A stretch of DNA of 64,000 nucleotides from Nymphaea colorata (lineage: Eukaryota > Streptophyta > Magnoliopsida > Nymphaeales > Nymphaeaceae). Positions 198-44,500 of the stretch are shown piece after piece (position 1 is the stretch's first letter; every line of letters begins with the position of its first letter). A program made the translations under genes and the position numbers. The DNA is taken from positions 12,166,571-12,230,570 of the forward strand of contig NC_045138.2 of assembly GCF_008831285.2 (NCBI RefSeq). Direction: 5' to 3'. The notes beneath the pieces were generated by a model that searched no databases, was not told the DNA's origin, and saw only the letters and a program-made list of their open reading frames with translations.

Positions 198-1776
198 GTA
201 CTTGCCCTGCCGATTTTGCCGCTAGTTTTTGCAACTTATTTCTCGAATTGGTGGGTTCGTTTTCTCTGGCTTCCTGTGGGGATCTCGAGGTAGGTTTATT
301 GTGGTTCGACAAAATTTATGACTTCTGCTCGATGTCTTTTTGTGGGTATAGGAGTTTTGGGTGCAATCCAGCTTTGCGGAGCTCTGTCTCTATCTGTCTC
401 TCTCTTTCTATGTATATCGGGATCAAAGGGATCTGAGTGTGGTGGGATTTGAGTGATATTGCTTTAGATTTTAATTTTCCTTTTCTTTTGGTTGTGGGTT
501 GAAGGCTCTTATCTTCGTGTTGGTTCGGCCGATTTCAAAGAGCTTCTTCAGGAGGATGAACCGGTTCGTCGCGGAGTTGCTGTGGTTAGAGTTCATTTGG
601 CTTGTCGATTGGTGGGCTAATCTTAAGGTTCTCTCTCTGCCTCCCTTTGGAACAAATCAATTGTTCGTGCTATTGGTTTTGCGAATTTGCTAGTATTCTT
701 TTCCAAGAAGCAGAAGTATTTCTACTATTGTTAGATGTTGTAGCTGTAGTTACTATTTCTAGTGAAAGTTTATGCTGGAGGACGTATGAAAAGTTTGAAA
801 GGAGAATAAATAGATAATCACATTTATGTCCTGCTCGGTTGGATCTTATGGAATAGTCCGGCTCCGATTATGAGTTAAGGTTAATACTCTCCCTTAGTTT
901 TTTTGGCTATTGTCAAATTAAATCAAAGAAAGGAAGAAGAGAGTGGAGAATGCCCGGTAACAGAGTTAAGACCCCTTTTTAAGGGGGCTAAACTCTAAAA
1001 TTCCAATTGAATCTCGGGTCTCAAAATCATAAGGTCTAAACTCAAATAAACACTAGAATAGAAGGCCCATTGAGTACCTGGCCCAGGCTTAGGCCCAAAA
1101 AGTGGGCTGTGGCCCTGGGTTGGCTCGACAAGGCCTGGTTCGGTCGATAACTCATTTTTAATATTATTTTAATATATATAATTATATATATTTTGTTATG
1201 ATTAATTATATTTATGTATTATTTTATGTTTTAAAAATATATTTTTTTAAGTTAACCAGGCTGGGCCGGGCTCGGATTTTGGTTGTCAGGCGGGGCCCGG
1301 GCCATGGTCATGGGCTATGGCCCGGCCCGATGCTGAGGCCTACTAGAATATCCAAATAAGAAGAAATGCTATCTATCCTAAGATCTAGAATGGATAGAAA
1401 ATCCGGGATGCAGCCCGCTAAACCATATTGTGTCAAGGTACCTCTTTGGTTCTGTGTGGTTCTACTCCTAGCTTGGACCATGACAAGTGTGGTGGTAGCA
1501 GTTCTCTTCACATCGACCTAGGCATCAAATGTGCAATCCAAACATAAGCATGCCTTCGATTTATTTACCATGTTATTAGGTTTAATATTCTTTAATGCAA
1601 CATAACTTTAAATTTCAATATTTAATAGTTTACTTTCATGGAAAACTGAGCACCTAAAAAGTAGTCCAAAGAGTCATGTAGGGAACAAGCATGATCTATA
1701 ATTTAGTTTCCTTGATGTTGGCATTGTATAAATCACAAGGATGTACCTCTGGTGTTATGGTGGGGCAATGCCCTTG

Positions 1777-1838
<62 letters not shown>

Positions 1839-4007
1839 CTACCATGTATATTTGTTCTACAAAGTTAACTGTATATATGATCTTTATATTTCATAAAATA
1901 GAACAAAAAATTATGTTTTCCATTCCAATGCATAGATAGTATCTTACAAGCTGAGAAGCCTCAAACCGTTGATTTTTTAAGCTCTTATATATGTTTTAGA
2001 CACAAAATGTTCTTCATTCTTAGGTTTTCGAACATGGAGAAGTTTAATTTTCTGAAAGACACATTCCCTGTACAGATATTTAAGTAGAGTGTATTACATC
2101 TGCATGACATTTTTCAATATGTAGACATGCACACACATATATACACAGTACAGCTGCTTGTAGGGCTGTCTCATGTAGGTTGAACAGTTCTCCTTAGGTT
2201 CACCTCTTTGTTGGTTCATAGAACGTAATATTCACAATCTGATGTTTTGGTGCAGGTTCATGTATATGCAGATTCTAAAACATTCAAGTCCTTAGGTGAG
2301 TACCCAATTTACTATTTGGATTTGCTGTCAAAAGTGCTAGCCGCTAGGACAAACCAGGCAATAACTTGAACTTGAAGCCTATGCAACATCAGGAGTCCAA
2401 CAAATGAGAAACCAATAAAGTGGGCTATTAAATGTTAAAATTATCAACAAAACTTAAGCATTCTAGATGAAAAGCATATGACAATTGATTTATAACAGAA
2501 AAATAATCAAAATACTTAACCATGTTTCTTAAAAGCATGCCTGGGCCTCTAGTGATAGATTGCACTGGCTGGCTGTTTCTAGCTGAGCTGCCACTTGAGA
2601 ATGCTTATACCATCACCTAGGTGCTGAGGCTTGCCAAGGCGCACAATAGCATAGGGTTATTTTCTTCAACAACTTTGATTTCTTCTTGTCTTCTTCTGTT
2701 GTTTGAGGTAGACCCTCTATCACACGGATACGTGGGTTTAGCCCACGTACCCGTATCCGATACGCGGACACGCATATCTGGATACGGGACACGGGTGGGA
2801 CATGCCAAAAAATAAACTATTAATTTAATGTTTTTTTTTTCATTTTATCATTTTTTTTGTGATGCATGCAATTATTTCCATGAACAATCCTTTCAAATAC
2901 TCAGCACTTTTGTGATAAAACAAACTTTCTTATAAGAGTGAACTATTAATTTAATATTTTTTTTCATTTTATTATTTTTTGAGAATATAAAATTTGCCAT
3001 ATCCACGTATCCAAAATTTTCAAAATTACCGTGTCTGTACCCGTATCACTGTACCCGTACCCATTTCGTACCCGCACCCATGTGACATAGGGTAGACCTT
3101 TTTCTCTCTTCTTCAATCTTTATGCAGATTTCTTTTTCTCATTATTTTTGCTGTTTCATGCGATTTTGCATTTGAAGTATATATGTGTGTGTGTGTGTGT
3201 GCTTCTTTGAATATTTATATCTTCTTTCTTAAGTTTTTAACTGCTACACACATATCTGATCTTTCTAATAATTTTTTCTTGCTTATTGGAATTATAATAG
3301 AAAACTGTTTTACAATTTGCTGTCTTAATATGGGTCCCAATGTCCCATGACTATTTTGATGATTTATGTTTGTCTTTTTTCCTAATTAAATTAGTATAAA
3401 GTTTTAGTCTAAATTTTAGGATTAGAAATTAGAATTAGATATTTACCAATAGTATTTATGAAACTTGAAGATTTTATATGTTTTAAAACATTGACAAGCA
3501 TTTATGTTAAATTTTATGCTTACCATGCTATATGTTATTCAAATTTTAGTTGTTCAACTTCATAAATTTTGTAAACGTTAATTTTATGTTTATTGTCATG
3601 CTATGGAATATCATTGTGCGTTTTATTATTATTTGCTTAGAATGAATTGATTTTTATAGGTTTAGTTTCGTTGCTAATTTTAGGAGTTCACTATTCCATT
3701 TTATTGTCTTTTTCGGCGTCTGCTTGATGTGCCTAGTCCCAAGTGTCTAATCCCACTTCAATTTTTGAGTCAAGCCACTATATAGGCTGCACTTGTTGCT
3801 TTTTATGGCATGGATGCCAATAACAGTAAATATTGCATAACATGATGATAAAGACAATGAAATGACTTCTTGCCTAATGAGCACCTAAGTTATTCGAACG
3901 CCTTATTTAAGTGGACGTACCTGTGTTGACATGCCCAGACAAGGTTGTGAACCTATGTCACATAGGTACGGTAAAGGTACGGACCATTTTCAAAAAATTT
4001 GGGTGCG

Positions 4008-4050
<43 letters not shown>

Positions 4051-7000
4051 GTCAAAAAATTTCAAAATGAATAACATATTCACAAAACATAGTATGGAAG
4101 TAATTTAACATTCAAATATATCAACTTTCTTGATTCTCCGTCGCATCATCAAGATTAGAAGGAGCACAGGTCACGCTTTTAAGATATATTGACATCACAC
4201 TACTATCGAAGAGTCAAGTTATAGAGAAGGAGTGGATTTTCGAAACATTGTATGGAAGATTTTAAATGAAAAGTTGTGAGGAACTATGTACAAGAAAGGT
4301 TTAAACTTTAAAGTGAAAAAAGAAACAAGAAAAGAGAGGGAGATTTTTAATTTTCAACTAAAAAAATGGACAACTTTGAACTTGGTCAAAGTTGACCGAG
4401 TCCAAAAATGGACAAAAATGATCCCGGGTACGTTGACCGTACCCAGTACTGCGTTGACCGCACCCAGGGACGTACCCGTACCCGTACCATACCCGTACCA
4501 TACGGGTACTCCTCCTTAATAGGAGTACCCGTGTGACATAGCTGTGAACATGTGTGCACGTCTGGACATGTCTCAGATGTTGTTCTGACCATGTGGGGGT
4601 GTGGCTAACCCACTGGAGGATGAATACATCTATTTTCTGACTAGGTCAAAATAACCAAGTCCAAATCCATCTAAAATTAGGGTTATTTTTAATTGTCACA
4701 TATTTATATGTGGGAAAGGGTTGACCTTCAATTCCCTTGACAATTTGAGAAAACTCTTGAAGCAGAAATCCTGCGGTGCCCTTTGACCACATTTTTCTTC
4801 CGTTTGTAGTGAAACTTTGATGACTTTTTCTAGGAATTGTCATCCAGCTGCAAACTCCAGTGACTCTGCATCCAGTGAGTCATTTGTGCATTCCTGTGGC
4901 TCATTTCCTCTCCAGCGACAGTGATGTTTCCTCTTCCTCCCCCTTCTGTCTATTACTCCCTCCCTCTTCGACATATCCATCCCTCTTTCTTTCTCTCTCT
5001 CTCTCTCTCTGACTGTTCTCTTTCTCTGTTTTTCTCCGTCATCTCCCTTTATCATTCTCAGTTTCTCTTAGTATTTTTTTTTAGTTTTTTTCGCATGCAA
5101 TGATATGAATATGCATGTCCATATTCTTTGTTATAAATCTGATAAGTGATACCACAGAATCACAGAAATGAATATGTTTGTGCTGGTTGAATCAAACACA
5201 CATATGCTAGCTATATACATCACTCATCTGCAAATAATGTGAATGTGGAATGATACGGGCAATGTTATCACTGGCGTAGTGTATCGCGTATCGGTCGGGC
5301 CGACCTATACGCCGTATCGTAACGTATCGTAAACGTATCGTAACGTATAGTAAAATTAATTTTTTAATTTTTAAAAAATATTAAAAAATCATAAAAATCA
5401 TAAAAAATTTCAAAAAATCATAAAAATTCAAAAAAAAAAACCGAAAAAACAAGTAAAAATCAGAAAAAATCAAGAAAAATGTATTTAAAGGAACATTCAT
5501 CATTCATGTATATGATTATGAAGTATGAAGTATGAACTATGACAGTATGAAGTATGAACTATGAACGACACATTCCAAAATAAGAAATTAGACATTCAAA
5601 TAACATAATAAGCAGCTGAAGAGAATTCAATTACATCACAATTCATAAGTTCAAAAGTGGAAACATATAGTTATCAATGCCACTGCCATGTAGGATCCAA
5701 CATTATATCTTCACAAAACAAGTGAAAACATACAAATAAATGTAGGAAATAAGAGAAATGAACGATTCAACGGCAAAAATGAGTTATTTCTTACCTTCTT
5801 GGTGTTAGAAACCAAAAAACCCTCTTTCTCCAAGCTTCCCACCGTCCCGAGACTCTCCACAACAAGAAATAAAGCTTCTTCACCGGCAAATCTTGATGCA
5901 AATGGAGAAAATCTCTTCCTCCCACGTCTCTTGCAGTGTTTAGAAACAATAGAAGAGAGAGAGAGGAGCGTAGGTTTTAAAAAAAGACGCAAAAAAAGGG
6001 CCGTCGGGCCCCTTTGTCATTTTTACCCCATATCGTATGAGACGGGGGTGTATCGCCCGTATCGTACGATACGGTGCCCGTATAGTACGATACGGGCGAT
6101 ACGTGTGCGATACGCACGCGTATCGTGCGTATAACATGTATCGTATCGTTTTTGTTGATACAGACGATACGTATCGTACGATACGCGTCCGTATCGTACG
6201 ATACAAATAACATTGGATATGGGTGTGCTACTGATAAGAATAGTTTTTTTTTTCTTTTTCTGATGCATGATCTATATTTTCTTTGATATGTAAATGATGC
6301 AAATAATTTGATCTTCCAGTGAGAAATCTTCCTCATTCTTTTTCCAGTCAATACTCTTGTTTGCTTCTTCTTCTTACCTTTCCTTCTGTTCTTTTTTCTT
6401 CTAAAACAATTTCATATCCCTTTTCTGAAATTTTGGATCTGAAACCTAATATGCTCTGACATCAAACCATAATTTTTTGTGTTGGCAAATCAAAGTTTGT
6501 TTGCCTCTATATTAGTTCGTATCTTGTTTTATCCGAGACATCTACAGATTTAAAATATTATGGTAGGTCTTCTGTCTGATCAGGTTCAGTTTTATCTGAT
6601 CAGATCAGACATGCATTTTGCCTGTGTGTGTTGGCCGTGGCCCTGGATCCAACTTTCTTGAAGTTGCTCCGAACTCGTTTCCGCATCCATACCTGTACCC
6701 ATGTGACAGAATTGAGCATGTTTCCTCATCTAAAATCTTCTCGATTTTCACAAAAGAGTATTTATACATATTTAATAGTTACATACTTAAATATGTATAC
6801 TGTACTTTATTAATATGTGTAGAATACATTTCATACATACAAGATACATATTAAACATTTCCACATCTATAGATTATGCACAATAACTGAAATGAAAAAT
6901 GCATGAAAACTTACTGTTTACAAAGTTAAAGGACAAAAGGAACAAGAATAAATGATAACATAGAAGAAAAGAAAATATGAAAGGACAAACAGAAGAAGAA

Positions 7001-13000: not shown

Positions 13001-16000
13001 TTCTTTTAATGACTTTCTTGTAACTTATCCCTCTCCTCTAGTCTATATAAAGAGGAGTTAGGGATTCTTTCGAGGTTAATCAAAGATTAGTTCTCTTAAC
13101 TTTATCAGTATTTGCATGTCGATGAATAGCTTAGTGATGAATAGTTGTAAACCTGAAAGGCTGAAACTCATATCACTAGTTTGTCATCAATCATGAATTT
13201 GCAGATTTCATTCAGAGTGATGAGAAGTTTGTTGTTTTTCTAGAAAGGATAATGATTTTGTAGCTAAATGGACATATATTATTGCATTAGAACCATTTTC
13301 ACGTCTTATTGGAAAAAGACGCTTATAATACGCCAAAACAGAGTCAACCGTGAATAAAACACATCTTTTTCAAAAAAACACCAGAAAATAAAAAACGTGA
13401 AAAAAACGCGTATTGTGCGCGTTTTTTTGCGTTTTTTTCATATTTTTTATGATTTTTTATTTTTTATATTTTTAGGATTTATTAAATGTTTTAAATTTTT
13501 TAAAAATTTGCTGAGATTTTTCCGTTTTATTTCCGAGACATACAACTTTGCCGTATTATACCCGAGAAATTCCTCACCGTATAATACCCATACACGTTTT
13601 TTGTGAACTTGATACTAGAATGTTGTCGCATGTTACTAGAATTGGTTTCTTTAGTTGCTGTTTGAACCTAGTCAGCACTGATCACCAAAGAAATCTTGGA
13701 CATACTATAGATAATTGCCTTGCAAGGAAATTTGCATGACTGCTTAATAAGATTATTTGTAGCTGCATCTGATTGGTTCTGGAATTCCACTGCTTCTAGA
13801 TGGCATGATGCTGCTGAGTTGTAACCACTTCCTGCCAAATCAAGAGTCTTAGTATGTTTGCCTTCTAATAGTATCCTAAGCTACTTTCAGTTAATTACAT
13901 TTCGACTAATAAGATCCAAGCCTTGTAAATACTAAACACCCATTGGCCAGCTTGTGGTCCATGAATTGCAACAACTGCACAGACTGATGTCATACTCTTG
14001 TGCAGAAATTGGTGCAATGCTGAGGTGATTTCATTAGGGGAAAAAGAAAAGTGGTTGGGTGGAATTTACATCTGTTAGGAGTTCCAAACTCTACTTATAT
14101 CATGATCTTGTAAATCTAGAATAAGGAATACTTGGGAAATGTCTGGGCTCAACTGGACTTTCCATGTTTACAACTAGATAACATGAACTGCGATGTTTGA
14201 CTGGCATTGGATATGTTTCACTGTATCTGAAGAGGAAATGTTATGACAAGGCACCTTATCGATTTATAGATGCTATGGCTCCATGAGTTTTGATGTTGGT
14301 TTTGAGAAAGCACCTTATCATTTACGGATGCTATGCCTCCATGCATTTAGATGTTGGTTTTGACAAGGCACCTTATCAATTTATAGATACTATGGCTCCA
14401 TGCATTTTGATGTTGGTTTTGGACCTTTTGGTGAAGGGAAGGCCTAACTGTATTATGGGAGATTGTTTGAATGTGCTTATCAGATGGACATGAATCAACT
14501 TCATTTATGATGAGATGACACTTTTCCAATACGAGCTGGACTTTGATATGCAATGTGAGAAATTGACATGGTACAATGAAAGTGAAAGTATTGGGATTGC
14601 CAAAACTATTTTCTGCCAGATCAGCCATCAAAAGTGCTATTAGGAACAAACTTTTGTGAACTAGTGCCTCAGTAATTCAGTTGAGCATGTGGAATTCCAA
14701 TGAAATATTGTAGATTGATTTCTTTATGGTCATAACATTGGCTGATCTAAAAGCTATATTGCAAGTCTCAGATATCTTCCATGTGAAATGGTGATGCTTC
14801 AAGTTAACATGAACAGCTAAAACATATGAAATTTTTAAAAAATTAAATAAAGGCAGTGAAGATGGTAAAAGTGTCATGGCAACAGCATCCTTCTCATTTC
14901 TCAAGATATAAGCATTTAAGATTTTATGTCCTATCCTTTTCCAGATAATTGTTCAGCAGTCTTCTTCTTTAAACAAAATTTTCTTAGTAAAAAAGCTTGG
15001 TTTACATTGGATGTGGAGCAGCCTTCTCATATATCTAGAAACATGTTACCATTCAGGATCCTTCCTTGATCTCCTTCATGGTGGTGCTCTACAGGGTTCA
15101 TCACTATTACTGCTATAGGATGCTCACCTGGCAAATGTTTGGGATCAGTTTCTAATTCGCCCAAACTTATGGTCATGCCATTGTCTTACTGTTTCTGGGC
15201 AGTGATTGGATGCCAAATATAAAGAACCGCTCATGGTAGGTAATCAAGCATATGATCAATTACATGTATGTGCTATTCATTCTCTCTATGCTGCAACCAG
15301 AAAAGAAGAAAACTAGGTTGGTTCAAATCTTATATTAGGGCAATCTTGGCTCTCAAACTGTTCACTGCCTCCTTTTCCTTGATCAATAATGGGACCAAAC
15401 TTACATCAGGATGGAATCAGAAAGCTGAAAAAAGAAGCTTCTTAACGTAGCACAAGATCATGTTTACCTCCCCTTGGCAATGTTTGCTTGTAAAACCAAG
15501 CCATCTCTAAGCGTCCCTTTTAAATGTTTTAAAATTCGCTTAACTGCCTTCATATGTTACATGGCTCATGCAGGAACTGAGAAAACTAGTTAACTGACTA
15601 AACAATGTGTGAGTTCAGTGCTGCAGCATTCTAACAGGACTGATATTCAGTGGGGTCATCACACAGATCTTCATGATAAGCTGATAACTTGTAGTAAAAA
15701 AAACTCGGGGTGATCAGTTTACAATATTCCATTCCATGTTACTTAGAATACCAATCAGAAATTTCTGTTGAATAAGTCATCTTATCTCCTTTTTTTTCAG
15801 TGGGGTCATCACACAGATCTTCATGATAAGCTGATAACTTGTGGTAAAAAAACTCGGGGTGATCGGTTTACACTATTCCATTCCACGTTACTTAGAATGC
15901 CAATCAGAAATTTCTGTTGAATAAGTCATCTTATCTCCTTTTTTTATCAACCTCGATCCTAAGGAAATAATGCAAATACTTCCAAGATCTTTCATTCTAA

Positions 16001-19000: not shown

Positions 19001-22000
19001 ACAACTAGAAAAACAAGATTTAAACTAGAAAACTGCAGTTAACTACTGCAAGTGTAAACCAAGTCTACACTAGCCAACAATATTGTAAAACTGCTAGAAA
19101 ATGTAAAAACCTGATATATACTAATAATTAGATAGTAACAAGCATAAAGCGCAACTTAAACATTTCTTCTAACTACAAGTTACATAACAAAGCAATGGAT
19201 TCAACTACAGAAATATATAAACTAAGAATTTATAGTAGAAATTGTAGAAAAACATGACAGGAAATAAGATAGAACACAACCAAACCATATCTAGATCCTG
19301 AAAATGCTGCAAAGGACAGTCTACACACTTAACTGAAGCACATCTAATAATTACCCACTAATATTTATCTAAAAACTGGTTTAATCTAGGGATAACTATT
19401 TAATATAACTATAAAAACAAGATTTTAACTATATAGTTAATCTACTGCAAAGGAAAATAAATGCCAATTGCTGCTGAATGCAGCCAGCAGCCTCATGGGA
19501 CAGCTTGTGAGCTGCGGGCCACAAAAACACCTAGAAACTACTAGTTAAAACAGTAACAAATCAATAAAAACTGCACATAATTATTTAATTGATGTTAATG
19601 AACGACTAACCACAACAATTAGGAACTAGAAAAGCATTAGACCACTACAAGTGCAATTCTTGATTGTTACAGCAGGAAATAGCAGAAAATAGATAAAAAC
19701 CGAACTTAAACTGCTGGAAAACAAGAATACTTACAGCTATACGATGAAAAATTAGCAAATCTACCTAAGAAACTCTGCTATTCAACTATCCTGGATGAAA
19801 ACGTGCAAGATGAATACACGGTTCTAGAATGATACAGCAGGGAATGGTTGAAACACAACTGCGAATGAAAAATTAATTGCTGAAAACTGTCACATAGGTG
19901 CGGGTGCCGGAGCGGCACAACTCAAGAAATTTAGGTGCGGCGAGGGTATTTATTATTATTATTATTATTTTTTATTATAATATATATGCATATAATATAT
20001 ATATGACAAAAATTGTCTATAAACCACAAAATTATCAAAATACTAATCAAGTAATACTGTAATCTGTAATACTTGTGAGGCTGAGCGACAATGGATGCCG
20101 TGAGCTTCAACCATCTTCCTCCCCAGCCCTTCAGCCCTTCTACTCACTGCCTCCCCTATTCCCCATTACACACAGTCACGGTGCGCGCCATGGTTAAAGA
20201 GGAAATGCTAAACAGGTATTAAGAACATGCTAAACAAGTAAAACTGTAAAACAGTAAAAGTTGCTGCAGGCTGCAGCAAAAGAATACTGATTTAATCATT
20301 TTAATGTTCAAAAATTAAAACAGAACAGTTAAAACAGAAAAATTGGCATTATATCAGGCTTAGCAGCACTCATAAGCCTTGAGTGGCTGTCTGGCTGAGT
20401 CTTGATGACAGAAACCAAAAAATAGAAACAGAAAACAAATAAAAACAGTCAATGAACGTTCACTCATTCAGACGGTAGAGACCAAACTAAGAAGCATTGT
20501 TGAAAATTTTAAACTAACATCTAATGAAAAAACGAACAAAAAGAAAACGAACAAACGTAAAAACAAAAGCAATACAATGCACAATAGATTAATAAAACAA
20601 AGAAAGGGACTGTAAGATGGGACTTGAATAACTAGAGAAAGCTGCCGGAAAAAAACGAACAAGAAGAAAACGAACAAATGTAAAAACGAAATCAATACAA
20701 CGCACAATAGATTAATAAAACAAAGAAAGGGACTGTAAGATGGGACTTGAAGAACCAGAGAAAGCTGCCGGAAAAAATGTGGCAAGCTCTGCCGCCGGAA
20801 GAACAACACCCCTGTTGACCGTTTGGTTCTAGTCGCCGCTGGAGGAACAAGCTATGTAGCCGGCTGTCGAAAACGCAGGCGTTGGTCACCGGTTGCTTCA
20901 ATGCAAGAGGGAGAAGACGAGAAGGGCTGCTGCGGGAGGAAGAAGCTCTGCCACTGGAAGGGGCACGATTGTGCCCTAAATCACTTTTAAAGAAATAAAA
21001 AATCAAAAAAATCAAAAAATGGAGAAAAAAGTCCATGACGCGTGTTACATTGATGGAGAAAGGAAGGAACGAGAGAGAGAGAGAGAGACGGAAAAGATTC
21101 ATTCTTCATATCGTGCCCTAACCTCTACTTAAATAGAGATTAGGGCACGACTGTGGCTGTTACATAAGTAGACATATAAAATTGAAAAAAGACAAAAGGG
21201 GACTCTAACTTTTAAATAGTCGGAAAACTACCGTACTTAAAACTAAACTTTCTGATTTCAACACTCCCCCTCAAGCTGGATCATAGATATCAATCATGCT
21301 CAGTTTGTCACGACATCTAGAGAAAAGCTACATGAACTGTAGACACCACACTTTCTTTTATAAGATCCCAAACATAATGACAATCCACCTCAATGTGCTT
21401 AGTTCTTTCATGAAATACTGGATTGTTTGCAATATAAGTGGCAGCCTTGTTATCACAGTACATTATCATAGGAAGAGGAACATGAATATTCATATTTGTT
21501 AGCATAGATTTAACCCACATCATCTCAGTCGCTGTTTGAGCTATTGCTCTATATTCAGATTCTGCACTTGATCTAGAGACTACATTTTGTTTCTTGCTTC
21601 TCCATGATATGAGATTGCCGCCAACAAAGATACAAAAGCTAGTTGTGGATTTTCTATCATCAATAGACCCTGCATAGTCAGTATCGCTGTAAGCAACAAC
21701 TTCTAGAGATTCACCTTTCTTAAAGAAGAGGCCTCTGCCCGGGGATGACTTTAGGTATTTCAACACCATCAACGCAGCATCCCAGTGCACTTTTCTAGGT
21801 TTTTTCATAAACTGACTTAATTTTCCAACAACAAAGCTAATGTCTGGTCTTGTTATAGTAACATAAAGAAGTTTTCCAATGAGAGACCTGTAAGATCATG
21901 AATCTACTAGTTCCGATTGATTATCGTGAAGATGAATACGTGGATTCATAGGGAGATTAGTCGGTTTGGTCCCTAGCATCCCTGTATCTTGTAGTAGGTC

Positions 22001-25000
22001 AAGGACATACTTCCTTTGATACAATACTACACCTTCTTTGTTCTGCGCAACCTCAATTCCAAGGAAATATCTCAAGTGACCAAAATCTTTCGTGACAAAA
22101 TGCTTTTGAAGGAAAACCTTTGTAGCAGAGATTTCTTGATCACAATCACCTGTCAAGATAATGTCATCGACATATACTACCATGACAACTACACCTGTGG
22201 AGGTCTTCTTGATGAATAGAGAATGATCCAAAAGAGATATTTCAAATCCATATTATGAAACCGCCTCTGATAATTTGTGGAACCACACCCTGGTACTTTG
22301 TTTGAGTCCATAGATAGCCTTCTTCAGACGACACACTTTACTACACTCCCCCTGTCGCTCGAACCCTGGGGGTTGCTGCATATATACAGTCTCCTCAAGA
22401 TCACCATAAAGAAAGACATTCTTCACATCAAGCTGATACATAGGCCAATCCGAGTGTACCACAACAGAAATAATGAGGCGAATAGTGCCCAACCTGGCCA
22501 CAGGAGAGAACGTCTCAAAAAAGTCAACTCTGTATGTCTGAGTGTAACCCTTAGCCACTAATCGAGCCTTATATCGCTCTAATGACCCATCTGAATGATA
22601 CTTAATTGTAAATAATACCCATTTGGAGCAAAAAACGTCACAATTTTAAGGTGGATCGACCAATTCCCAGGTACCATGCTGTACGAGAGCATCCATCTCA
22701 TTTTGCATAGCTTTCCGCCATTTACAGTCTAGTAATGCCTGTTGATGACAAGTTGGTATAGTATGGACTGACATAGCCTTAAGAAACTGCTGTAAGTTGT
22801 CATCAAGATGGTCAGTGGAAACAAAGTGAGAGATAAGATGCATGATACATTGTCTCTTGCCTTTGCACAGAGCTATAGGCAAGTCTTGGGAAGGATCAAC
22901 ATTAGGTCTACTTACTTCAGTGGAGCTCACATCCTGAGAAGAGTCTGATGGTCGACCATGAGAGGGATCCTGTCGCAGAGTCTTGACCAATGGAGGGTCC
23001 TGGAACCTTTTCATAGTCGGAGTAGGAGAAGGAAAAGATTGCAATGGGACAGGAAGAATAGGTAGAAGAATAGGACATGGCATCTCAGATGACATAGAAG
23101 TAGGACTAAAGTTGGACTGAGACTCGAACAAAGTGACATTCGCACTGATATACTCTTTCTGAGTTACCGGGTCAAAGCACTTATATGCTTTGGTTTCTAG
23201 GATAGCTAATGAACACACACAGCAGAAAGTTTATCATGTTTAGGCCCAAGAATGTGAACAAAACAGGTACACTCAAACGCTTTAGGTGCAACAAAAAATA
23301 AGCTTCGATTGGAATACACAAGTTTAATAGGTACTTTGTTCTCAATAGGGGATGAAAGTAAACGATTTGTCAGGTAACAAGCCATGAGTATGGCTTCACC
23401 CCATAAGTATACAGGTACATGATTATGAAGCATTAGGGTATGAGCAACAGTTAGAAGTTGCCTATGTTTTTGTTAGGCGACTCCATTCTGTTGTGAGGCA
23501 TGAGGGCATGTAAATTGAGGAGAGATACCATTTTCAGCATAAAAGGTCATTAAGATAGATGATTTGAACTCAAGAGCATTATCAATGCGAATACACTTAG
23601 CCACAGAACAAAACTGAGTTTTTATTTCAATAATCAAGTTTTTGAGAATACAAATTACTTCAGACCTTTCCTTCAAAAGGAATACCCAACTGACTCGAGA
23701 GTAATCATCAACAACTACCAAAAAATACCTAAACCTAGCTCGGCTAGCAACCCTGCTAGGCCCCCACACATCAACATGGAGAAGATCAAATAACCCTTGA
23801 CTTGAAGGACTAAAACTCGAAGGAAAACTACTACGAGTCTGCTTGCCAAGTTGACATGCCTCACACTGAAAAGACTGGAACTGAGAGATTAGGTAGGATA
23901 GAATGGAGCTTGGGCGCTGAAGGATGACCAAGCCTAAGATGCCACTGGAAGAACTTTGATGTAGAGGAGGTAGCATCAAGACCCCTAGGAGCCGACAGGA
24001 TGTAGACGTCCCCATTCTCATAACTGCCACCAATCATCTTCCCAGTTTGCTAGTCCTGAAATGAGCATGAACCAGGGTAAAAAATAATGCGACAGTGTAA
24101 ATCAGTAGTCAACTGTTTGATAGAGAGCAAATGAGATGGAAATTTAAGGGCATATAAAACATGTGGAATAGTCATAGACTGAGAAAGCTTTACATCTCCA
24201 TAACCCAATATGGGTGACATACTACCATCTGCAATTTTGACATGACGTGGCTGAGGCAATATATGTAAAGTAATGAACGACCCAGGTCTACTGCAGAAAT
24301 GTCTCGATGCTCCTGAATCAATAATCCAAGACATACCTGAATCAGACATGGATGTACTCGCTGAGAAGGCTCAATCAGTCAAAGCTGTGGAAGCTGAAGC
24401 TTGTGAGGCTTTGTGTGCTAAAAATTGCTCATACTCAACTCTGTCAATGCTAACTGTAACTGTCTCTGATACTATGCTAGACGAAGAGCCCCCCACCGTA
24501 GGAGTGGCAACCTGTGCAGAGCTCATAGGAGGATGAGGAAGGCTCTTGCCCTGTTTGGTGACCATACCTCTTCCCTGTGACATAGAGGATGGACGACCAT
24601 GTTTCTCCCAACAGCGATCCTCCAAGTGTCTCATCTTTCCACAATAGGTGCATTGAAACCTCCCACGACCACCAGTTCCACGACCTATACCTCTTCCTCT
24701 GGCACTATAGGTGCTGCCCTGACCACGACCACCCCCCATACCAAGAGCAGAAGCTAGCGTTACACCAGCTGGTTGGGACAAGCTAATAGCTAAGTCTATT
24801 GTATGCATCAGAGAGATTAGGAATTTCACTCCCAGTGAACATCAGATCCTTGGCAGCGGCATACTCAGGAGAGAGACCAGCAAGAAACTTTGCAACCATG
24901 GTAGGTTCAAAGTGTGACTTATAACAAGATTTGCATGGAGGGCGCAGAAATTTCAGTCGTTCATAGGTAGCTTTAACTGTTGCAAAGTATTGTGATAAAT

Positions 25001-28000
25001 CCTGATTTCCCTGTCGGAGTTTGTGCAATTTTTCTTAAACTTGAAGGATTTTACTTACATTTTTATCTTGTGAATATGTCTCCCTAAGGAATTCCCACAT
25101 CTCTTTCGCAGTAGTATAGTAAGTAATAGTACAAGCAATTTGTGGTTGGACGTTGTTCATAATCCAAGACATAACCATACTGTCGTCCTCTTCCCAGGTC
25201 ATGTACTTCCCTGACTTGTTAATAGGTTCATCCTCTTCAATTATATGCCTCTTTCGATGTCCCTTGACCGACATGATAAAGGACCTGGGCCACAGTTTAT
25301 AGTTATGTCCATCTAATTTAACACTAGATCCATAGGAGAAGGGATTTTCAGCTCCTTTATGATCATTGCCACCCTCTGATTTGTTGCTCTCAGCCATAAT
25401 GAACCACAACAGGAATTAAGAGCAAGAACACCACGATAAAATTGTGCAGCAAGTAGGGCACACAAAAAAAACAGTCCTATTTAAAATCAGTCAGTCATGC
25501 AGACAAAGTAGAATCAACCATATCACATGCCCAACAATAATCCATAGAAAAAACAGCAGACGTGCACAATCCTCCTTTACGCAGATTTCACCTAACACAT
25601 TTACAAAACAACAAACATGCACAAACTTCCTTCACGTAGACTTCACCAAACTTCACCAAACTACATACCTTCAACTTTATCACCACCACGACATGCCTTA
25701 AACTTCATAATTATACCACAGAAATAATTAGTAGTGATAGAGAACATCAAACCCTAGTTTCCACAACATAAGCTTATGAAGAAATCACGAGATCAGAAAA
25801 AAAAGAAGTCTGCCTTTGACTGCAACGATCACGAGATCAGAAAAAGAAGTCTGCCTTTGACTGCAATCATCGCAAGAACATAAAAAGAAGTCTGCCTTTG
25901 ACTGCAACAACTGCCTTTGACTGCAACCATCACCCCAACTTTGAAAATGTGTCTTCATATCTCCGACGATCTTCAGACATTGCAACGACCAGATTTAGGG
26001 CATCTAATCACTACTGATCATGTCATGGCAGTGATTAGATACCTGATCTCCCATACGATAGAGCCCCTTAGGGCAAACTGCCACCCATGGCAGATCAGGA
26101 CAAAATAAAGAGATGATGAGGAAGAGGAAGAGAGGAGGGCAGGAGAGGGGAAGGCTACCTGCTCTGATACCATGCTACACGATGGAGAAATGAAGGAACG
26201 AGAGAGAGAGAGACGGAAAAGATTCATTCTTCATATCGTGCCCTAACCTCTACTTAAATAGAGATTAGGGCACGACTGTGGCTGTTACATAAGTAAGACA
26301 TAGAAAATTGAAAAAAGACAAAAGGGGACTCTAACTTTTAAATGTTCAGAAAACTACCATTCTTAAAACTAAACTTTCTGATTTCAACAACGCGGATTGA
26401 CCGCATCCCACTCGCGTCAAGTGCGAGTCGGGTGCACGTCCAAAAATGACAAAAATGGTTGGGTGCGGTCAACCGCACCCGACTCTCTTTGACTGCGGTT
26501 GGGTTCGAATCTGGGTCGCATCCGCACCCGCATCGTGTCGATGCTGGTGCATCAGCAAAACCGAAGCGTCCATGTGACTTAGGCTGAAAATTTTAAGATA
26601 TTATCTCCACACGATAAAAAAAATAACAAAAAAAAATTCACACCAGTACAAGCTGACCGACCAAACTAACTAAGATATACATGCTTAAATCAGTAAAACA
26701 TCAAACACACACATGATTTAGATGACCCAACACAGAAACTCATCTAGGAACAAAGGTATATTGCTGGAAAACACGAAATTCTAAGCTTCTACCACAAGGA
26801 CATGCAAAACACACAAAGTTGGCATAAAATGAAAGAAATCATTAATACCTACCAGAAAACGGTGTTTAGTCTCCTTGAATCCCTGATTTGTAGCAACTCC
26901 CAGCTCTAGAATCCTCCTTTGGGCTCTACTTTTCCACCCACCGAGCTTGGCTTCGAGTTATTAGAGAACAAAGATAAGGAAAGAAGAGGGTCATGGTGGA
27001 ATGGAAGCTTCTGTCCAAAGTGGCATCACCTTGTAGCTGGGTAGCAAAGCTTCTTTGTTTTAGCTCTGATTTCAATCAAATTTGAACCGCGACTCCTTGA
27101 GCGCTACACAAGTACAAACATGGGGATTTAAAAATTAAATCACATCAAAATTGCATGAAAATAATATTAAAAATCAAGGCATTTTCATGCATTATCACTG
27201 GATTCATGGAGGGCTTCTGTTTCACCATTCCTGGTTTCCATCCACTTCCTAAAATTGACTACATAGAATGCAATAAGTTCATCTTCCTTTCCTAGAGTTG
27301 CTAAGAACAATTGAAAGTCCATAGAAAAGTTATTGTAACTTACTATGCAATTGGATGATGGGGACAGGTAGACTATATGACATCATATGCATGTGAGGAG
27401 GTGGGAGGTGGAATCATTTATTGGGTAGGATCTATTGAATATGCGGTCTCTCTTCTGCCATTCTGGTGATGTTTTGATGCCTTGTTGGGCTACCAACTCC
27501 TCAACTACTTGAGTATGTTTTTGCTGTTGATGCAACTTGGATGACTAGGGAGTGGTTTTGTACTCAACCATGGATGATAGACCTCAATAGCTGGTGGTGA
27601 TGCATGGCTCACATTGAGGCAGTGATAGAAAACAATTAATAAAAAATGGCATTTTGTCACATTTTTATTGATTTGCTTACTGTTTATATCCTTTAACCTC
27701 ATCCACAAAGCCCACAAAACTGCCCCTTTAGAGCTCGGTCCTTAAATTTATGACTCACAACCCTGTCAATGTGACATGACAAGCACTTTCAAAAGCATGC
27801 AAGACATAATAATTAGGATGAATACCAATGAGTGTATTATGTGTAGATTTATCCATTGTCACAGAAAACGTTTTTTTTTCAAAAAAAAAAAATGCGTATA
27901 ATACGCGAAAAATAAGTCAGCCGTATAAAACGGCAATTAGACGCATCTTTTTTAAAAAAACACCAGAAAATAAAAAACGTGAAAATAATATGCATTTTTT

Positions 28001-31000
28001 CACGTTTTTTATATTTTTTATTATTTTTTTAAATTTTCAGGATTTATTAAATGTTTTAAATTTTTTAAAAATTTGCCGAGATTTTCCCGATATATTCCCG
28101 AGATATACAACTTTGCCGTATTATACTCAAGAAATTCCTCGCCGTATAATACCCATACACGATATATGTGACAATGGATTTATCTTCAACAATTGCCATA
28201 AGCAACCTGCTTGTCACATATATTGCAGTATGAAATGCTTGTGTCCATAAGGGAGGGAGGCTGCTACGACGCATCCTACTCATCACACTATCAATTATAT
28301 GTTTGTAGTTTTGTTCGACATTCTTATTTGGTTGAGGTGTGTTAGGATAACGAACCCTTCTTCCTATTCAATTATTGTGTGTGCAAACTTCAGAACCAAA
28401 AACAAAATTCAGCAAGAAATAGAATCATGCAACATGAAGCTGAATCTTCATTAACTTCAATCTGCTATTGTATAGAGCAGCAAGTCACGTTACAAAGTTA
28501 CAAACCAAAGGGCAAAAGTAAAAGTCCGTCCAGTAGGGAACGGAACCCTACTTTAAGGCTCTACTAAAGGCAGTAGTACAAAACTGTCCTCACTTACAAA
28601 GGCTAAAATGGTAGATAAATTTAAAACATTTTATAATAGAGTGGACAGAAATAGCCTTTGACTGTCAGTTAAAGAATTCAATGTGATATCCTTTGGATTC
28701 TAAAAAAGATTAAACCATTAGAATTCATAGTCTTTAAGAAAGCACAATTGTTTCCTCCTTGGAGCGCCTATAAAATGATTGATGCTGACAGGATTTGTGG
28801 GTCTGGAAGTTTTGTGGCAGAGATGCTACAGCTGTTGACACCTGCCTGTGCAAGAAAATGTTGTCTCCTAATACTAGTAATCAGTTAGCTACTTGTCAAG
28901 AAAAATTTTAACTCAGATTGTATAATGCAATTTCACACTTGGGCACAATGAAAATATTCTGTGAATGCTGCAAGTGCAACTCTTCTAAATTATGTGATCT
29001 TTTGGGTATCTCAAGTCCTCAACTCATAGGTATTCAGACACTTTTTACGGTTTTGCTCTGTGAGCCATATGTCCTGGCATCTTTCAGCTTATCTTTTAAG
29101 TTTTAACACAGCCAATTAAATTTGCACAAGGTTTTTGAAATCTGAACTATATACAGGTTCTTGGCTGGTCCATGTGGTTTTCTGAATATTTGTTCCTTGA
29201 GAGAAGCTGGGCAAAGGATGAGAACACATTGAAGGTATGCATGCCACTTATCATATATATGGGCATCCAGGAAAAATGGCTGTGAGTTCCGATGTACTGC
29301 TGCAAAATTCATGCTTTATAATTTGATGTTGCAGTTCGGCCTACAGCGATTGAAGGACTTTCCTCGCCCTTTTTGGTTGGCACTTTTTGTTGAGGGAACA
29401 CGATTCACTCAGGCAAAGCTTGTAGCAGCTCAGGAGTATGCTGAAGCAAGCGGATTGCCTGTTCCTAGAAATGTTTTGATTCCTCGCACAAAAGTGAGTT
29501 TGTGCAACGATTGTATTTGGTCTCAGATAGTTGCCACAATGTTGTCTTTGATGAAGTACCTTATGGATTTCTGAAGTACATATGCTGGCTATCTTACTGT
29601 CATTGTTTTCTGTAAGGGGATTAACTGTTCGTGGATTTTGAAGCAAAATTATGAACCTCCATGTTAATTTTGTGAAATATCACTGAACTATAACCTTTAG
29701 AAAATCTTTTAGTTGAAGGATTCAATTTATGTATGGCCTGTAGAGCCCTTTGTTCTATGTTTCAGCTAATCAAATCTGTTCTGTTACATGGAGGTCCGCT
29801 CAATGGACCTGAGAGTTTGCCTATATTTTCTTACTGTTCCTTTTTTGTACTTTGGTATAAAAATAAAGTTGGCAGCAAAAATTTTCTGTGAGGATATGAT
29901 AGAGATAAATTTTGTTTCCTACTTTTCGAGGTCAACAATGACACTGAGACTTCAAATTCAGATCAGGTTAATTGGAAAAACAATCAGAGCCATGCCTGTG
30001 ATAATTGTGATATTATTTAACTATCTTTGATAATTAGCACCATAACTAACTATTTAGAACAAAAGATCCACTTAAGTTTTGTTTCTGGGCTGTGATTTAA
30101 AAATTTTATTTGGCATTTGGCTATCTGTCTTATAATTTCATGTCTGGTTTCATTGCATTATCTGTGTGGTTCATTGGAATGTAGTCTTCAGTCATTAGCA
30201 GTCACAACTTCATTTAGTGGTCATCATACATTAAACACAGAATTCTGTATTTGAAGCACAATATATTGATGGTATTGCCATTTTTTCTAGTCTCCACTTC
30301 TAACATGATTTTGGTATCACATTTTGCAGTGTCAATTATTTGCCATGATTTTTGTTTGCAAGACATGGAGGAATTTAGGCTGATGTTTCATTGAAAAGAT
30401 GAATAGTCTAAAGAAGAAATGCATTTTTATTTTCCACCTAGGTTGGTGGTTGATGCTTACAAGTAAAATCTGAAATTTGATTAAAATTACTGTTAAAAAC
30501 ATATACTGCCTAGAAATCTGATTGGTTTACTACTTTACTTGGAGAATCCTTGTACATTATTTGGAAGTCATTGCCATCCTAACAATTTTCTAATATGAGA
30601 AATATTTACATATTTTTTTGTGTACATTTCATCTTTTCACTAGTATCCTTTTCTCCTTTTTTCTGAATAGACTTATAGACTGCATCCATGTTGACCACTT
30701 ATCTGAGGAATTGCCATTATTTTTTTGCTGAATCTTTTCTTTTCTGTGTTCTTGTTCTTGTTAAGAGCTGGCAAAGCAAACATTTCCATGTTTATTGCAT
30801 CCATAGCCACAAAAAACAGGTTTTTTAAAAGAAAACATGTTAAGAACATTAAAAACAGGTTACCAAAAAAGGGGAAAACATTTTTTTTTTCAAAACAAAA
30901 GCCAAAAATCAAAAAGTGCCTTTTTTCTTGTTTTTTCATTTTCTTTGTGTTTGTTGACGTTTTTGACGTTTTTTACTGCTTTTAATTACCAGATTTTTAT

Positions 31001-33996
31001 TTTCACATTTTTTGCATTTTATTCTTAAGATTTTGAACACCTTTATCTTTCTCGGTGAAAGATTAATTGTTTTAAAGTGCTGAATTTTTCCCAAAAACCA
31101 AGTTTCCCGTTTTAAACCCGAGAAAAACCTTGCCATTTAGAACCCGAAAACAATATTTGCAGCTGTGGTTGCATCTTATAGCCCTGTCTTATGCACTATG
31201 TAGCACAAACTCTTCAAGGAGGTTGTCACACCCATCTCGTGCCTGCACTGGGTGCTGGTGCATCTCTGACTCACTGAATTTGATTTTCAACTATGATGAG
31301 TTTATGCCAACTTTGTACACTAGGATTAACTTTATTTTGAGCCTGCTGTTGTTACTTCTTGCTTTGCTATGTAAAATTTCTAAATTTTGTTTTGCTATAA
31401 GGTGCTGAGTTTTTTCTGTCTATGCTTCGACCTTGAATGGCCCTACTTTTCTTTTTCCTTAGTTGATAAATGATGGAGAGCCTGCTTGTCTATCAAAGTG
31501 AAAATTAAGAAGTATCATGGAATTGTCGGTGTCTAGAATGTCAGGCAATTACCTTTCATGCTTATGGAAGTGTTCATGACACAGGGTTCTTGTTCCTAAA
31601 TCTGATGGGTGCATATCATTCTTGTTATCTATATAACACATCCTCTTATTGTTGTGTACTGATAGAAAACTTTCTGATGTTACACTTATAATTTTTCACT
31701 TTCATCTTAGGCAACTGTTTGTTCAATGCAGGGATTTGTTTCAGCTGTAGCCACCATGCGCTCATTTGTTTCAGCCATCTATGATGTAACTATTACTATT
31801 CCAAAAGATCAGCCATCCCCTACTATGCTGAGCATTCTGAAGGGCAAATCTTCTGTTGTAAGCATCGAAGAATAGCTTAAAGCCTGAAACGATTGGCTCA
31901 TCTACGTGTTATATTTCTGCATAATGTTGTGCTTTAAAAACTTACTCACACACACACACACACATACACAAACAGTTCCATTTTATGACTGGTTCATTTT
32001 GTGACTGGTTTTTCCAACCCTTCTTCTGTATCTCTCTCACGTACTTTTTCTTTCCTCCTCTTTTTCATTTTTCTTTTTCATAACCATCCTTTCCACCCTA
32101 GGATCGGCGGATTCTGGTGAAAAAGGGACATGAAAATCCAGGCCCATTTTGGTTGTGTTTTTTAACTGGTTTTACTCATTTCCCATCTGCATAACATACA
32201 CAGACACACCAGACACACACATGCACACACACTTATGTATATATATAGAATTTTTGTATATACGTATGTACATATATTTGTACACACATATGTTATTTAA
32301 TGAATACATAGTACAAGTGCCGTGTACTTTTTGCTGCACAGTTTTCTGTTGCCTTGTTTCTTTTTCATGTGTTCTTTAAGTTCTTATTTTCCTTTTTGTT
32401 TATTTCAGCTCAGCCATAAAATGGGAGCTAGCTGTTGGTTAGTCTGATGGCTGCATGTTTGTCTGTTGGGACTAGCTCAACAGCTATTTCAGTCCGTTGC
32501 TGTATATATAGAGGCTGCCCCTCTTATAATTTTAGTTTAAGATTTCTGTGACTTCTCTTTAATGAAATCCAGTATTGTTTCTTGAATGTGTTGCTCTTAG
32601 AGAGCTTGGTGGTTTAGCCTTGATAAAATATTGATTCTTGAGAGCCATCTGTTTACTTCCTATTTGTGAGGAATTTAGTTGCTGTTGTCACCATTTCATT
32701 ACATGCAGAATCAGCCCAAATGTCATGTGATGTCTTGCTTGTGCTTAAGTAATGTGCTGCTGTTGATTGTTTGTCCTTGTGTGGCATGTGTAGGCAGTGT
32801 TGGGGATATTTGTTGCTGTGATTCTCCTGAACTCTGCTTTCTCCTCAGGTCCTTTAAGTAAATTTCTTTTTTTCTGTTTGTATTAGATGAAAAGTTTTTT
32901 GTCACTATCTTTTCCCCAAAGTTTTCGTCTACCATGTTACATGGTCTTTTATGATAGGACACCATATTGGTGGAAGGACTTCGGAGTTTCATTGACAGAA
33001 CTGAAAAAAAATGCAAAGGAATTCTTAGGAAAGAAGTTGCAGGCAGCAATAGAGCTTTTGGGAAAAATTTATTAGTGGCTATTAAAAGAAATGGGAAACT
33101 TGAGAAGCTGGACACTACAAAACTATGCTATGCCTTCAAAATTTCAAATAGTCTAGATACGCTGATTAATGTAAATCTTGCTAAGTTAACCCATGAAACA
33201 TGGGCTTATCTTTAAAAAACCCATACCATGGAGGTTGTTGGCCATAAATGTAATCTCCTACAAAGAATTATGCAATTAGGAGATAAAACTACTGGGGAAT
33301 ATCTTGTTCTTCTCAGTTCTCACTCAACTCAGTGATGAGCTCAAAGTGGCAAGACCTTCTGGATATTGGTTTTTGTAATCAACAATTAGAAGAAAGTTTT
33401 TCCATGTTCATGATTTGGCCAACCAATTAGAAGAAGTAAGTTTTTTCATGTTCAGGATTGGCCTCAGATGAATCTTATAGAGTTAGGCCATTTCTTAGAG
33501 CATGTTCTTTCAATTCAAGTGACCCTTGTTGGACTCTTTATGAAGAATAGGATCTCCTTTGCTGGAGCTAAGAATTATTGTCCTTGATGCATCAAGGCCT
33601 GGTTCAAATGTTAAAGCATATAGATTCCTCTCTTTAACAATATTGCGATTCATTAAAAAGAACTACTCGTTAATTGTTATCGTTGCGGAGAAGCGGGATA
33701 TGTTAAACTATAATGTCCTAAACATAGAAGACGGGAACCTTAAAACATAAGACTATAAGAGAGTTCCTGTTGCTGAACCTCAAGAAGATGCAAAGAAAAA
33801 GGAATAATAATTGTGTCCTTGTCTCTTATGCAACTCATGGAGGCTCTTCAATCTCTCATCAAGGGCAACCCATTTATACCAAGAGCCATCTCTATACATT
33901 CTCCTTAGGATATATCCACTTGCCTTTAAACTTGCAAGCTTCTTTTATGAGAAATCTCTTTCAAAATGTTATTGTTGAATATTGGAGGAAGAAGGG

Positions 33997-34035
<39 letters not shown>

Positions 34036-38516: not shown

Positions 38517-38565
<49 letters not shown>

Positions 38566-41500: not shown

Positions 41501-44500
41501 ATTAATGGTACTTTTGTTGATGAGCAACTCCAAGATATTGGCCGACCCCTAAAATCTATGATGGTATGTTTTATGCTGGTTATTTTTGTATTTCCTAGGT
41601 AGACTGTATGAATTTGTTGCTATGTCACATAGGTACGGGTACGGGTGCGGGTACGAACCATTTACAAAAAATTTGGGTACGGGGGTACGGCCATACACAC
41701 ACATGTATATATGTCAAGATTTTTACAGAATCACTGAATCAGTCACTATTAGCCACCTTTTGTTTTGAAAGTCAAAACAAAGGCATTATCTAATTCCACA
41801 GGAACAACATGAATTTACAGTGAAAACTCACTAAACATCCCCAAAGTCCCAAACAGTGACGATTTTTACAGAATAACTTTGGCAAAATTTCCCCAAAATT
41901 GAACACGCTGTAAATAACGCACAAAAAGAAACAAAATTTCTATTGAACATGCTGTAAATAACACGCATAAAAGAACCGCCTCAACCGATGAGAAAACAAG
42001 CAATACCAGAATGTCAGATGCATATGAGAACAAACCTTATACAGGAAAAAGCAGGAACGGAGGCGACGTTTATAGCATATCCAAGACAAATGAGGAAATG
42101 ACGAAAAACTGAACTACGTGCTTTAAGAAGTGAAGATCTCGCTGGTGGAAACGACGTCTGCCGGCACCAGACTAATGGAAAGAAGAGCGCATTGACAGAA
42201 AATAAAAGAAATCGGCAAAACGGAAGCAAATACCGTCCGATGTCGCCGGTCGCCGTACGCCGTCGCCGGTCGCCGTACGCCGCTGCCGCCGGTCGCCGCC
42301 GTTCGTCCACCCAAGTCGCCGGTCGCCCCAGATGCTTCCTCTCGTTCGTGAAATGGGTAGAAGGAAGAAGATGTCGAGGGGTTTAGGGTTTTCTTCGACC
42401 AATTTAACGTTAGGTAATTTTTAAAAGTTAAAAACTTAAAATCGTTAAAATAAATAATGGACATCTTTGGACTCGGTCAAAGTTGACCGAGTCCGAAAGT
42501 GGACCGATTTGAACCTGGGTACGTTGACCGTACCCGGTACGCGTTGACCGAATTATTGGCGTACCCACGGGCGTACCGGTACCGTACCCATACCGTGCGG
42601 GTACTCCTCCTTAGGAGTACCCGTGTGACATAGGTTAGAGATCATTGGAAGTATATACTGCATACGTTTAACCAGGCAACTTGTCCAGCATATTTTTGTG
42701 TATGCTGTAATATAGATAAAATCCTGGACGTCTTGAACTCAAAAATCTCACTAGGACACACCAATAGAGCTGAGATGAGAGAAACTGTGCTCTTTATTTC
42801 ACAATAAAAAGCTTCCAAGAAGCATGGCTTACAAGCAGGGACGGCAGTCTCTTTTAAAGAGAAGAACAAATAGTAGTTGGAAACATTCCAATGGATAGAA
42901 GAGCTGCATCTCAAAAAAATGAAATATACAAAAAGTGCAAAAGAAATTATTGAACCTATTTGGAATCAAACCTCCAACAAGCATATACTGATTAAAAACA
43001 ACTTATACAACTGTATACATAAGCATGTATAAGTATAATATATTCATAAAATACGTATATACGCATGTATTTCCCTAACTTTAACAGCCTCCCTCAAAAT
43101 TACAGTGTTACAACCAAAAATTAGTTAAACAAAAAGTAAAATCTTGAAGACAAATATTCGGCAAGGAAATCATTCAACTGGAATTCCGAGGTAACATATG
43201 ATTTCATATTCTTCTTCAAATACTCTTCCTTAATATAGTGAGAGTCCATTTCAATGTGTTTCATCCTTTATTGAAAACTGACTTGTATGTAGCATTCTTA
43301 TTGTCACGAGAAGGATGTTGGTTAATAACTCCTACTTCTTGAATGAACTACCTTAGCTATACAATCTCCACCATTGGTGTCACTGCAGCTGTGTGTTCAG
43401 CTTTAGTCTTTAGTTGGGAAGGGGGACTTTTTTGTTGCTTTTCACGTTTCCATTATATTAATAGATTATATAAAATTAGACGAAATTCAGTTGAGTGGCA
43501 ATTATTTGGACATTTTCCCAGCCAGAGTTAGTATATGCTACCAAATCCGAAGTAGAAAATGACGATTAAGAATAGTCCATTATACAAGAAACAAACATAT
43601 GATGCACAAACATAGACATGTGAGACGTGGAGATGTCTTTTCAGTTACGACAGTCAGAATGATAAATTTCATATTACTAGAAAATATAACTTCCATAAAA
43701 AACAAAAAGGGCTTTGAAAAACTTTGTGCAAATAAGGAAATAAAATATATTTGTCCATTCAATTTGTTGGATACTAGTAATAGTGACATATTTATATAAA
43801 AATAATTTGAATAATGAAATGAGCACCAATGATGAATCTCATATCAATGATGAGCTGAAGTCCAGAGACAAGTATGAACTGAATGACAAGAATGAAACTT
43901 TAGGAGAACTTAGACTCACACTCATAAAGGAAATGGCAACAATCAAAATGATAGAATGTGTTCTGATCCAAAAGTAGATGAGTCAAGCCTAAGAAGGTTT
44001 CAACGAATTTCCATTCTTGATAAAGCTTGTTTCCCACTAAGCATTTGTCATTGATATAGATGATTGTCTTTTAACTATACATGCACATGGGGACATCAAG
44101 TCTTGGCCATTCGATTTAAGATTGGACGGCCCAGATCTCTTCTCTATATCCCCCCTTTCTCTCATTTTCTCAACAAGGAAGCTTGGTGGCTCCCTCTTGT
44201 CATCGCTGGCGGGGCCCAGTGTCGGTTTCCCTTACGAGAAGAGGGGAGAGAGAGAGAGAGGAGGTGGAGGAGGAGAGGGATCCATGGGAAGAGGGAGGTA
44301 GAGGCGGGGGGAGAGGGGAGATATGGGCCCAGATTTGATGTCTCTTGATGTGTTAAAAAAAAGTTGAAGGTAGCATTTTGAGATTATGTAGAAATATCTG
44401 AGAGATCAAAAGAAGAGCAGAGGTTTATTTATTGCCGAGTAGATAAAACCTAGGGGTTTCTCCACAAGATTCGTCCATGGAGGGTGTCAGGGTCTAAGAT

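What the first reader, a model, noticed from the sequence alone, without database searches (positions are those of the whole stretch)
1061..42633. Several hAT-like families with dense, family-specific terminal motif arrays in one gene
Seen: non-autonomous elements with 8-bp duplications and short inverted ends fall into families with ends CTATGTCACA (five copies plus fragments), CATTGTCACA (three or four), CAATGTTAT (one) and a GGCCC type (one). Three of the families carry arrays of a short motif just inside the ends. The first three ends look related (TGTCACA / TGTTATCAC). Known: hAT transposases bind repeated subterminal motifs. Inference: these are derivatives of related transposases whose binding arrays have diversified.
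Basis: partly seen in the sequence, partly recalled or inferred. Interest (0 to 1): 0.7.

Follow-up and report, generated by a model that had tools for sequence, protein, structure and literature searches.

The report
Non-autonomous hAT transposons with motif arrays
The window holds several kinds of short, gene-less hAT-type jumping genes, and in the same plant genome hAT transposase genes lie between or beside the same kinds of ends for two of them, so the finding is real but belongs to a well-known kind of mobile DNA.

Summary
Family A (CTATGTCACA ends): four of five window copies have 8-bp duplications, one with a mismatch; 41620-42633 has none. Families C and D have one copy each with 8-bp duplications (7 of 8; 8 of 8). 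Family B has one convincing copy, not three or four. Motif arrays exceed shuffles in two of four A copies tested and in the C copy, not in B or D1. Genome-wide, 687 exact A ends occur, reversed control 0. Of two A-end pairs 2-10 kb apart on C1, I read 2000 of 3552 bp inside one: it encodes DUF659 (E 6e-43) and a hAT dimerisation region (E 2e-8). That interval lacks a duplication, so an intact autonomous element is not shown. Family D's end type and GGCCC array recur downstream of other hAT genes. So D is well supported as hAT, A likely; B and C rest on ends and single duplications. That arrays bind transposase is inferred. Verdict: ordinary superfamily, new families; A's end departs from the published hAT consensus.

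The parts
2715..3090 (.). A1, family A non-autonomous element (376 bp)
   Evidence: ends CTCTATCACA/CTATGTCACA, duplication GGTAGACC exact
3953..4541 (+). A2, family A element (589 bp), left-type and right-type ends
   Evidence: perfect 10-bp ends, duplication 7 of 8; ends align with those of the transposase-bearing interval on C1
16140..17203 (.). A3, family A element (1064 bp), hexamer array TACCGG 16178-16250
   Evidence: duplication CTGAAATC exact; array
19887..26582 (.). A4, family A element interrupted by a long insertion (copia-like by eye)
   Evidence: duplication GCTGAAAA exact; left end CTGTCACA is 2 bp short
41620..42633 (+). A5, family A ends without duplication (1014 bp); GGTACG array 41632-41655
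   Evidence: flanks ATTTGTTG/GTTAGAGA differ; array
27854..28176 (.). B1, family B element (323 bp), no dense array
   Evidence: ends CATTGTCACA both sides, duplication GATTTATC exact
13295..13611 (.). B2, diverged family B relative, bounds approximate
   Evidence: internal similarity to B1 by eye; no convincing duplication
5260..6215 (.). C1, family C element (956 bp), CGTATCG arrays
   Evidence: ends CAATGTTATC/CAATGTTATT, duplication 7 of 8; arrays
1061..1342 (.). D1, family D element (282 bp), GGCCC type
   Evidence: duplication CTAGAATA exact; right end TAGGCCTCAGCATCGGGCC resembles ends downstream of hAT genes

Best explanation
The elements are non-autonomous hAT transposons. Each family keeps only what a particular hAT transposase needs: a short terminal repeat and, in A, C and relatives of D, a dense array of a family-specific short motif just inside. 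A transposase made elsewhere binds the array through its N-terminal DNA-binding domain, pairs the ends, cuts the element out and inserts it with an 8-bp staggered cut. For family A the transposase is a DUF659-type hAT protein; for family D it is one of the TAGGG-ended hAT families. Shown: ends, duplications, copy number, arrays, a transposase gene between A-type ends and transposase genes next to D-type ends. Inferred: binding, mobilisation, and that B and C work the same way.
For: 8-bp duplications and no other length above 3 bp among 132 A pairs. 687 A ends of one type, 0 control; 78 of the other type, 0 control. Of 10 right-type ends on C1, 2 face a left-type end 2-10 kb away; the inside of one was read (2000 of 3552 bp) and has DUF659 E 6.2e-43 and Dimer_Tnp_hAT E 2.1e-8 on the minus strand. 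Its ends align with A2 and A5. D: three of the seven hAT loci extended (open frames 670, 440, 657 aa) carry 22, 25 and 16 GGGCC/GGCCC words in 800 bp; two contain the end CCCAGCCCTA, and the sequences after it differ. A D-type element in L016 has an exact 8-bp duplication AACATGAT. Published hAT precedents, passages or sections read: Ac, Kat1, Herves, Hermes.
Against: The transposase-bearing A interval has flanks GTTAAACC/GCCACAGG, so no duplication; the second pair has GTTACATG/GTTGCAAC, 5 of 8, and its inside was not read. Among 16 listed DUF659 hits on C1 (of 150 scored, 1131 candidates) one has an A end facing it within 3 kb, which chance gives with P 0.11; none of 14 listed dimerisation-domain hits on C1 has one within 6 kb. 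The A end CTATG has T at position 2, against [T/C]A[A/G]NG. No A or C array was seen in 600 bp downstream of 20 hAT genes (three near-identical loci have an exact 9-bp C-end match but no array) or in the 7 extensions. The coding stretch read is split over three frames (introns or decay, not told apart).
Confidence: 0.77

Rival explanations
1. The A ends belong to another superfamily that also makes 8-bp duplications (P or Merlin type; recalled), and the DUF659 hAT gene between two A ends is an unrelated insertion or neighbour.
For: No duplication around the 3552-bp interval; the A end does not fit the hAT consensus at position 2; DUF659 hits listed on C1 are not significantly close to A ends.
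Against: The interval was chosen from end positions alone, before its content was known, and with about 1131 DUF659 candidates in 408 Mb a random 2 kb would rarely hold one; the dimerisation match lies about 0.6-0.7 kb inside the left end.
Confidence: 0.13
2. B and C are not partners of A-related transposases but independent hAT families whose similar-looking ends arose by chance.
For: No partner found; arrays differ; no shared core beyond shuffles except in C.
Against: L002 has one A end and one B end with an exact duplication; end similarity TGTCACA/TGTTATCAC.
Confidence: 0.4
3. The arrays are ordinary simple-repeat growth with no role in transposition.
For: B has no array; the motif counts of A1 and D1 do not exceed shuffles; hexamer tandem runs can grow by slippage; for D-like ends the reversed control also shows arrays (6 of 31 against 17 of 50).
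Against: Arrays recur just inside several A ends and inside the ends of two other hAT families next to their genes.
Confidence: 0.2

Closest known systems
Maize Ac/Ds (hAT)
   Same: short terminal repeats, clustered hexamer AAACGG sites bound by the transposase, non-autonomous derivatives sharing only ends and some hexamers (passages read, PMC3260210)
   Different: end sequence and hexamer differ; no activity shown here
Herves and Hermes (insect hAT)
   Same: repeated subterminal motifs bound by transposase, through BED domains in Hermes (passages and one section, PMC3143072; passages, PMC10368747)
   Different: different motifs; here some arrays are tandem; binding untested
Plant hAT families with [T/C]AGNG ends (consensus in PMC6027215, passages)
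   Same: the family D-type end TAGGGCTGGGCATCGGG fits
   Different: families A and B depart from the older [T/C]A[A/G]NG consensus at position 2 or 3

Membership tests
hAT superfamily (family A) | 8-bp target duplication | tested here: met
   10 of 132 pairs exact at 8, 0 at 4-7 and 9-12; four of five window copies
hAT superfamily (family A) | transposase with hAT dimerisation region in an element with the same ends | tested here: inconclusive
   PF05699 and DUF659 found between paired A ends, but that interval lacks a duplication
hAT superfamily (family A) | terminal consensus [T/C]A[A/G]NG | tested here: not met
   CTATG: T at position 2 (consensus); a statistical consensus, not a strict requirement
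hAT superfamily (family D) | 8-bp target duplication | tested here: met
   D1 (8 or 9 bp) and the L016 copy
hAT superfamily (family D) | hAT transposase with the same end type | tested here: met
   ends and arrays 3' of PF05699 genes; only the 3' side was read, and D1's own left end GAAGGCCC fits less well
hAT superfamily (families B, C) | 8-bp duplication | tested here: met
   B1 exact, C1 7 of 8; essentially single copies
hAT superfamily (families B, C) | hAT transposase with the same ends | tested here: inconclusive
   not seen downstream of 20 of the 150 listed hAT genes; genome-wide end searches for B and C got no answer or were not sent
all | transposase binds the subterminal array | not testable with these tools
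   needs a binding assay

The most novel reading that the evidence does not exclude
A, B and C form one lineage of DUF659-type hAT elements with an unusual CTATGTCACA-like end, in which the transposase's DNA-binding domain and a dense 6- to 10-bp array have co-evolved into new pairs within one genome, giving a natural series for studying how hAT end recognition changes.
Probability: 0.3. Interest if true: 0.5.

Novelty: new member of a known kind. Interest (0 to 1): 0.32.

Why it matters
Several hAT families with distinct, readable motif arrays and matching transposase genes in one genome would let end recognition be compared across relatives. As it stands it mainly adds families of a familiar superfamily.

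Tried and rejected
Tried: a shared CGTA core in the arrays (not above shuffles except C). A search for any inverted ends matching at 9 of 10 bases with exact duplications: 41, 14, 15, 2, 8, 1, 1 and 0 cases at 4, 5, 6, 7, 8, 9, 10 and 11 bp, so 8 bp stands out over its neighbours while 4-6 bp are chance-rich. A signature regex for the dimerisation region in the 320 kb then held gave nothing. Scanning 600 bp downstream of 20 of the 150 listed hAT genes found no A or C array; 7 of the 20 were extended and 3 others, read. Literature: exact-string search for the A end (44 papers hold it or its complement, 20 listed, titles and abstract starts seen, none about transposons; 24 not seen), for its array (2 papers, neither about plant transposons by title and abstract start), Nymphaea with hAT and MITE (2 fungal papers), and general hAT searches (listings). 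These do not prove absence from print. Not finished: a protein search with the A transposase and end searches for B and C.

Full report
Setting. The window is C1:12166571-12230570 of a 408-Mb, 783-contig genome. The first 43 kb look, by eye, like long introns of one acyltransferase-like gene; a Pfam scan of one presumed 53-aa exon returned no family.

Elements. Four families were checked. A (CTATGTCACA): 2715-3090, 3953-4541, 16140-17203 and 19887-26582 have 8-bp duplications, one with a mismatch; 41620-42633 has good ends but none. B (CATTGTCACA): 27854-28176 is convincing, other claimed copies are not. C (CAATGTTAT): 5260-6215, duplication 7 of 8; a similar end is in L024. D: 1061-1342, duplication CTAGAATA. 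Across 34 records and 132 A-type pairs, exact matches of the flanks occur 10 times at 8 bp (7 loci) and never at 4-7 or 9-12; 19 of the 34 records were chosen at or next to doubled A ends. In L002 an A end is paired with a B end.

Arrays. With dinucleotide shuffles of the two terminal 150-bp stretches, the motif counts of A3, A5 and C1 exceed all 200 shuffles, A2 ties, and A1, B1, B2 and D1 do not exceed; A4 was not tested. Tandem Repeats Finder gives units GGTACG, CGTACC and TACCGG in A copies and CGTATCGTAA in C. In 25 records, three or more family motifs lie within 150 bp of 8 of 47 A-like ends (reversed control 0 of 12), 3 of 151 C-like ends (0 of 94), 0 of 34 B-like ends (0 of 19) and 17 of 50 D-like ends (6 of 31, so weak for D).

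Genome-wide. The pattern CTATGTCACAYRGGTRCGGGT has 687 exact matches and the reversed control 0. A second kind of end, CTATGTCACACGGGTACTCCT, has 78 and 0. A2 and A5 have one end of each kind.

Transposase of family A. The list of the 687 places stops at 100, 96 of them on C1. Of 10 right-type ends on C1, two face a listed left-type end 2-10 kb away (3552 and 2478 bp). I read 2000 bp inside the first. The minus strand holds a 378-aa open stretch, running off the piece read, with DUF659 (E 6.2e-43) and, in another frame, a hAT dimerisation region (E 2.1e-8); a third stretch matched no family. That DUF659 goes with hAT transposases is recalled as well as seen here. Its two ends align with those of A2 and A5. 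The interval's flanks do not match, so its ends may come from a rearrangement. Among 16 listed DUF659 hits on C1, one has an A end facing it at 1.9 kb; chance P is 0.11.

Transposase of family D and another array family. PF05699 gives 1113 candidates, 150 scored, all over the cut-off. Downstream of three of the seven genes extended to 1.4 kb are dense GGGCC/GGCCC arrays. Two of these contain CCCAGCCCTA, after which the two copies differ, giving the end TAGGGCTGGGCATCGGG, like D1's right end TAGGCCTCAGCATCGGGCC; the third stretch stops before such an end. A D-type element in L016 has an exact 8-bp duplication. Two other hAT genes are followed by CGGATT-type arrays and GACATCCCTAG.

Mechanism. 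Published passages report that Ac and Herves transposases bind clustered subterminal motifs, that Hermes does so through BED domains at its left end, and, as a suggestion, that such repeats help Kat1. The same role here is the most likely reading but is untested.

Judgement. hAT membership is well supported for D, likely for A, and only suggested for B and C. The A end departs from the published hAT consensus, which is the least ordinary feature. Overall these are new members of a known kind.

Noticed in passing
L002, L003, L004, L006, L008, L010, L011: An A end together with 4-16 bp of its outer flank is repeated in tandem (periods 21-48 bp); flank repeats of 8 bp or more in 5 of 11 loci and of 4 bp or more in 7 of 11, all selected for doubled ends. 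Could be repair of nicked or abortively cut ends.
   Followed up: partly
L061 and L062 (C4:7558320-7559119, C14:2906225-2907024): Another hAT family with long CGGATT arrays and ends TAGGGATGTCAACGG downstream of its transposase gene.
   Followed up: partly
G000, PF04937 hits: Eleven rows share the same DUF659 score (197.4), eight of them with 650-aa open frames, suggesting a recently spread DUF659 hAT family.
   Followed up: no
L059, L063, L064: A hAT group whose copies stay alike to the end of the 1.4 kb read past the transposase domain, possibly including captured host gene sequence.
   Followed up: no
window 30800-31170: A possible further element with ends like CATAGCCACA and flanks sharing TTGCATC, read by eye.
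   Followed up: no
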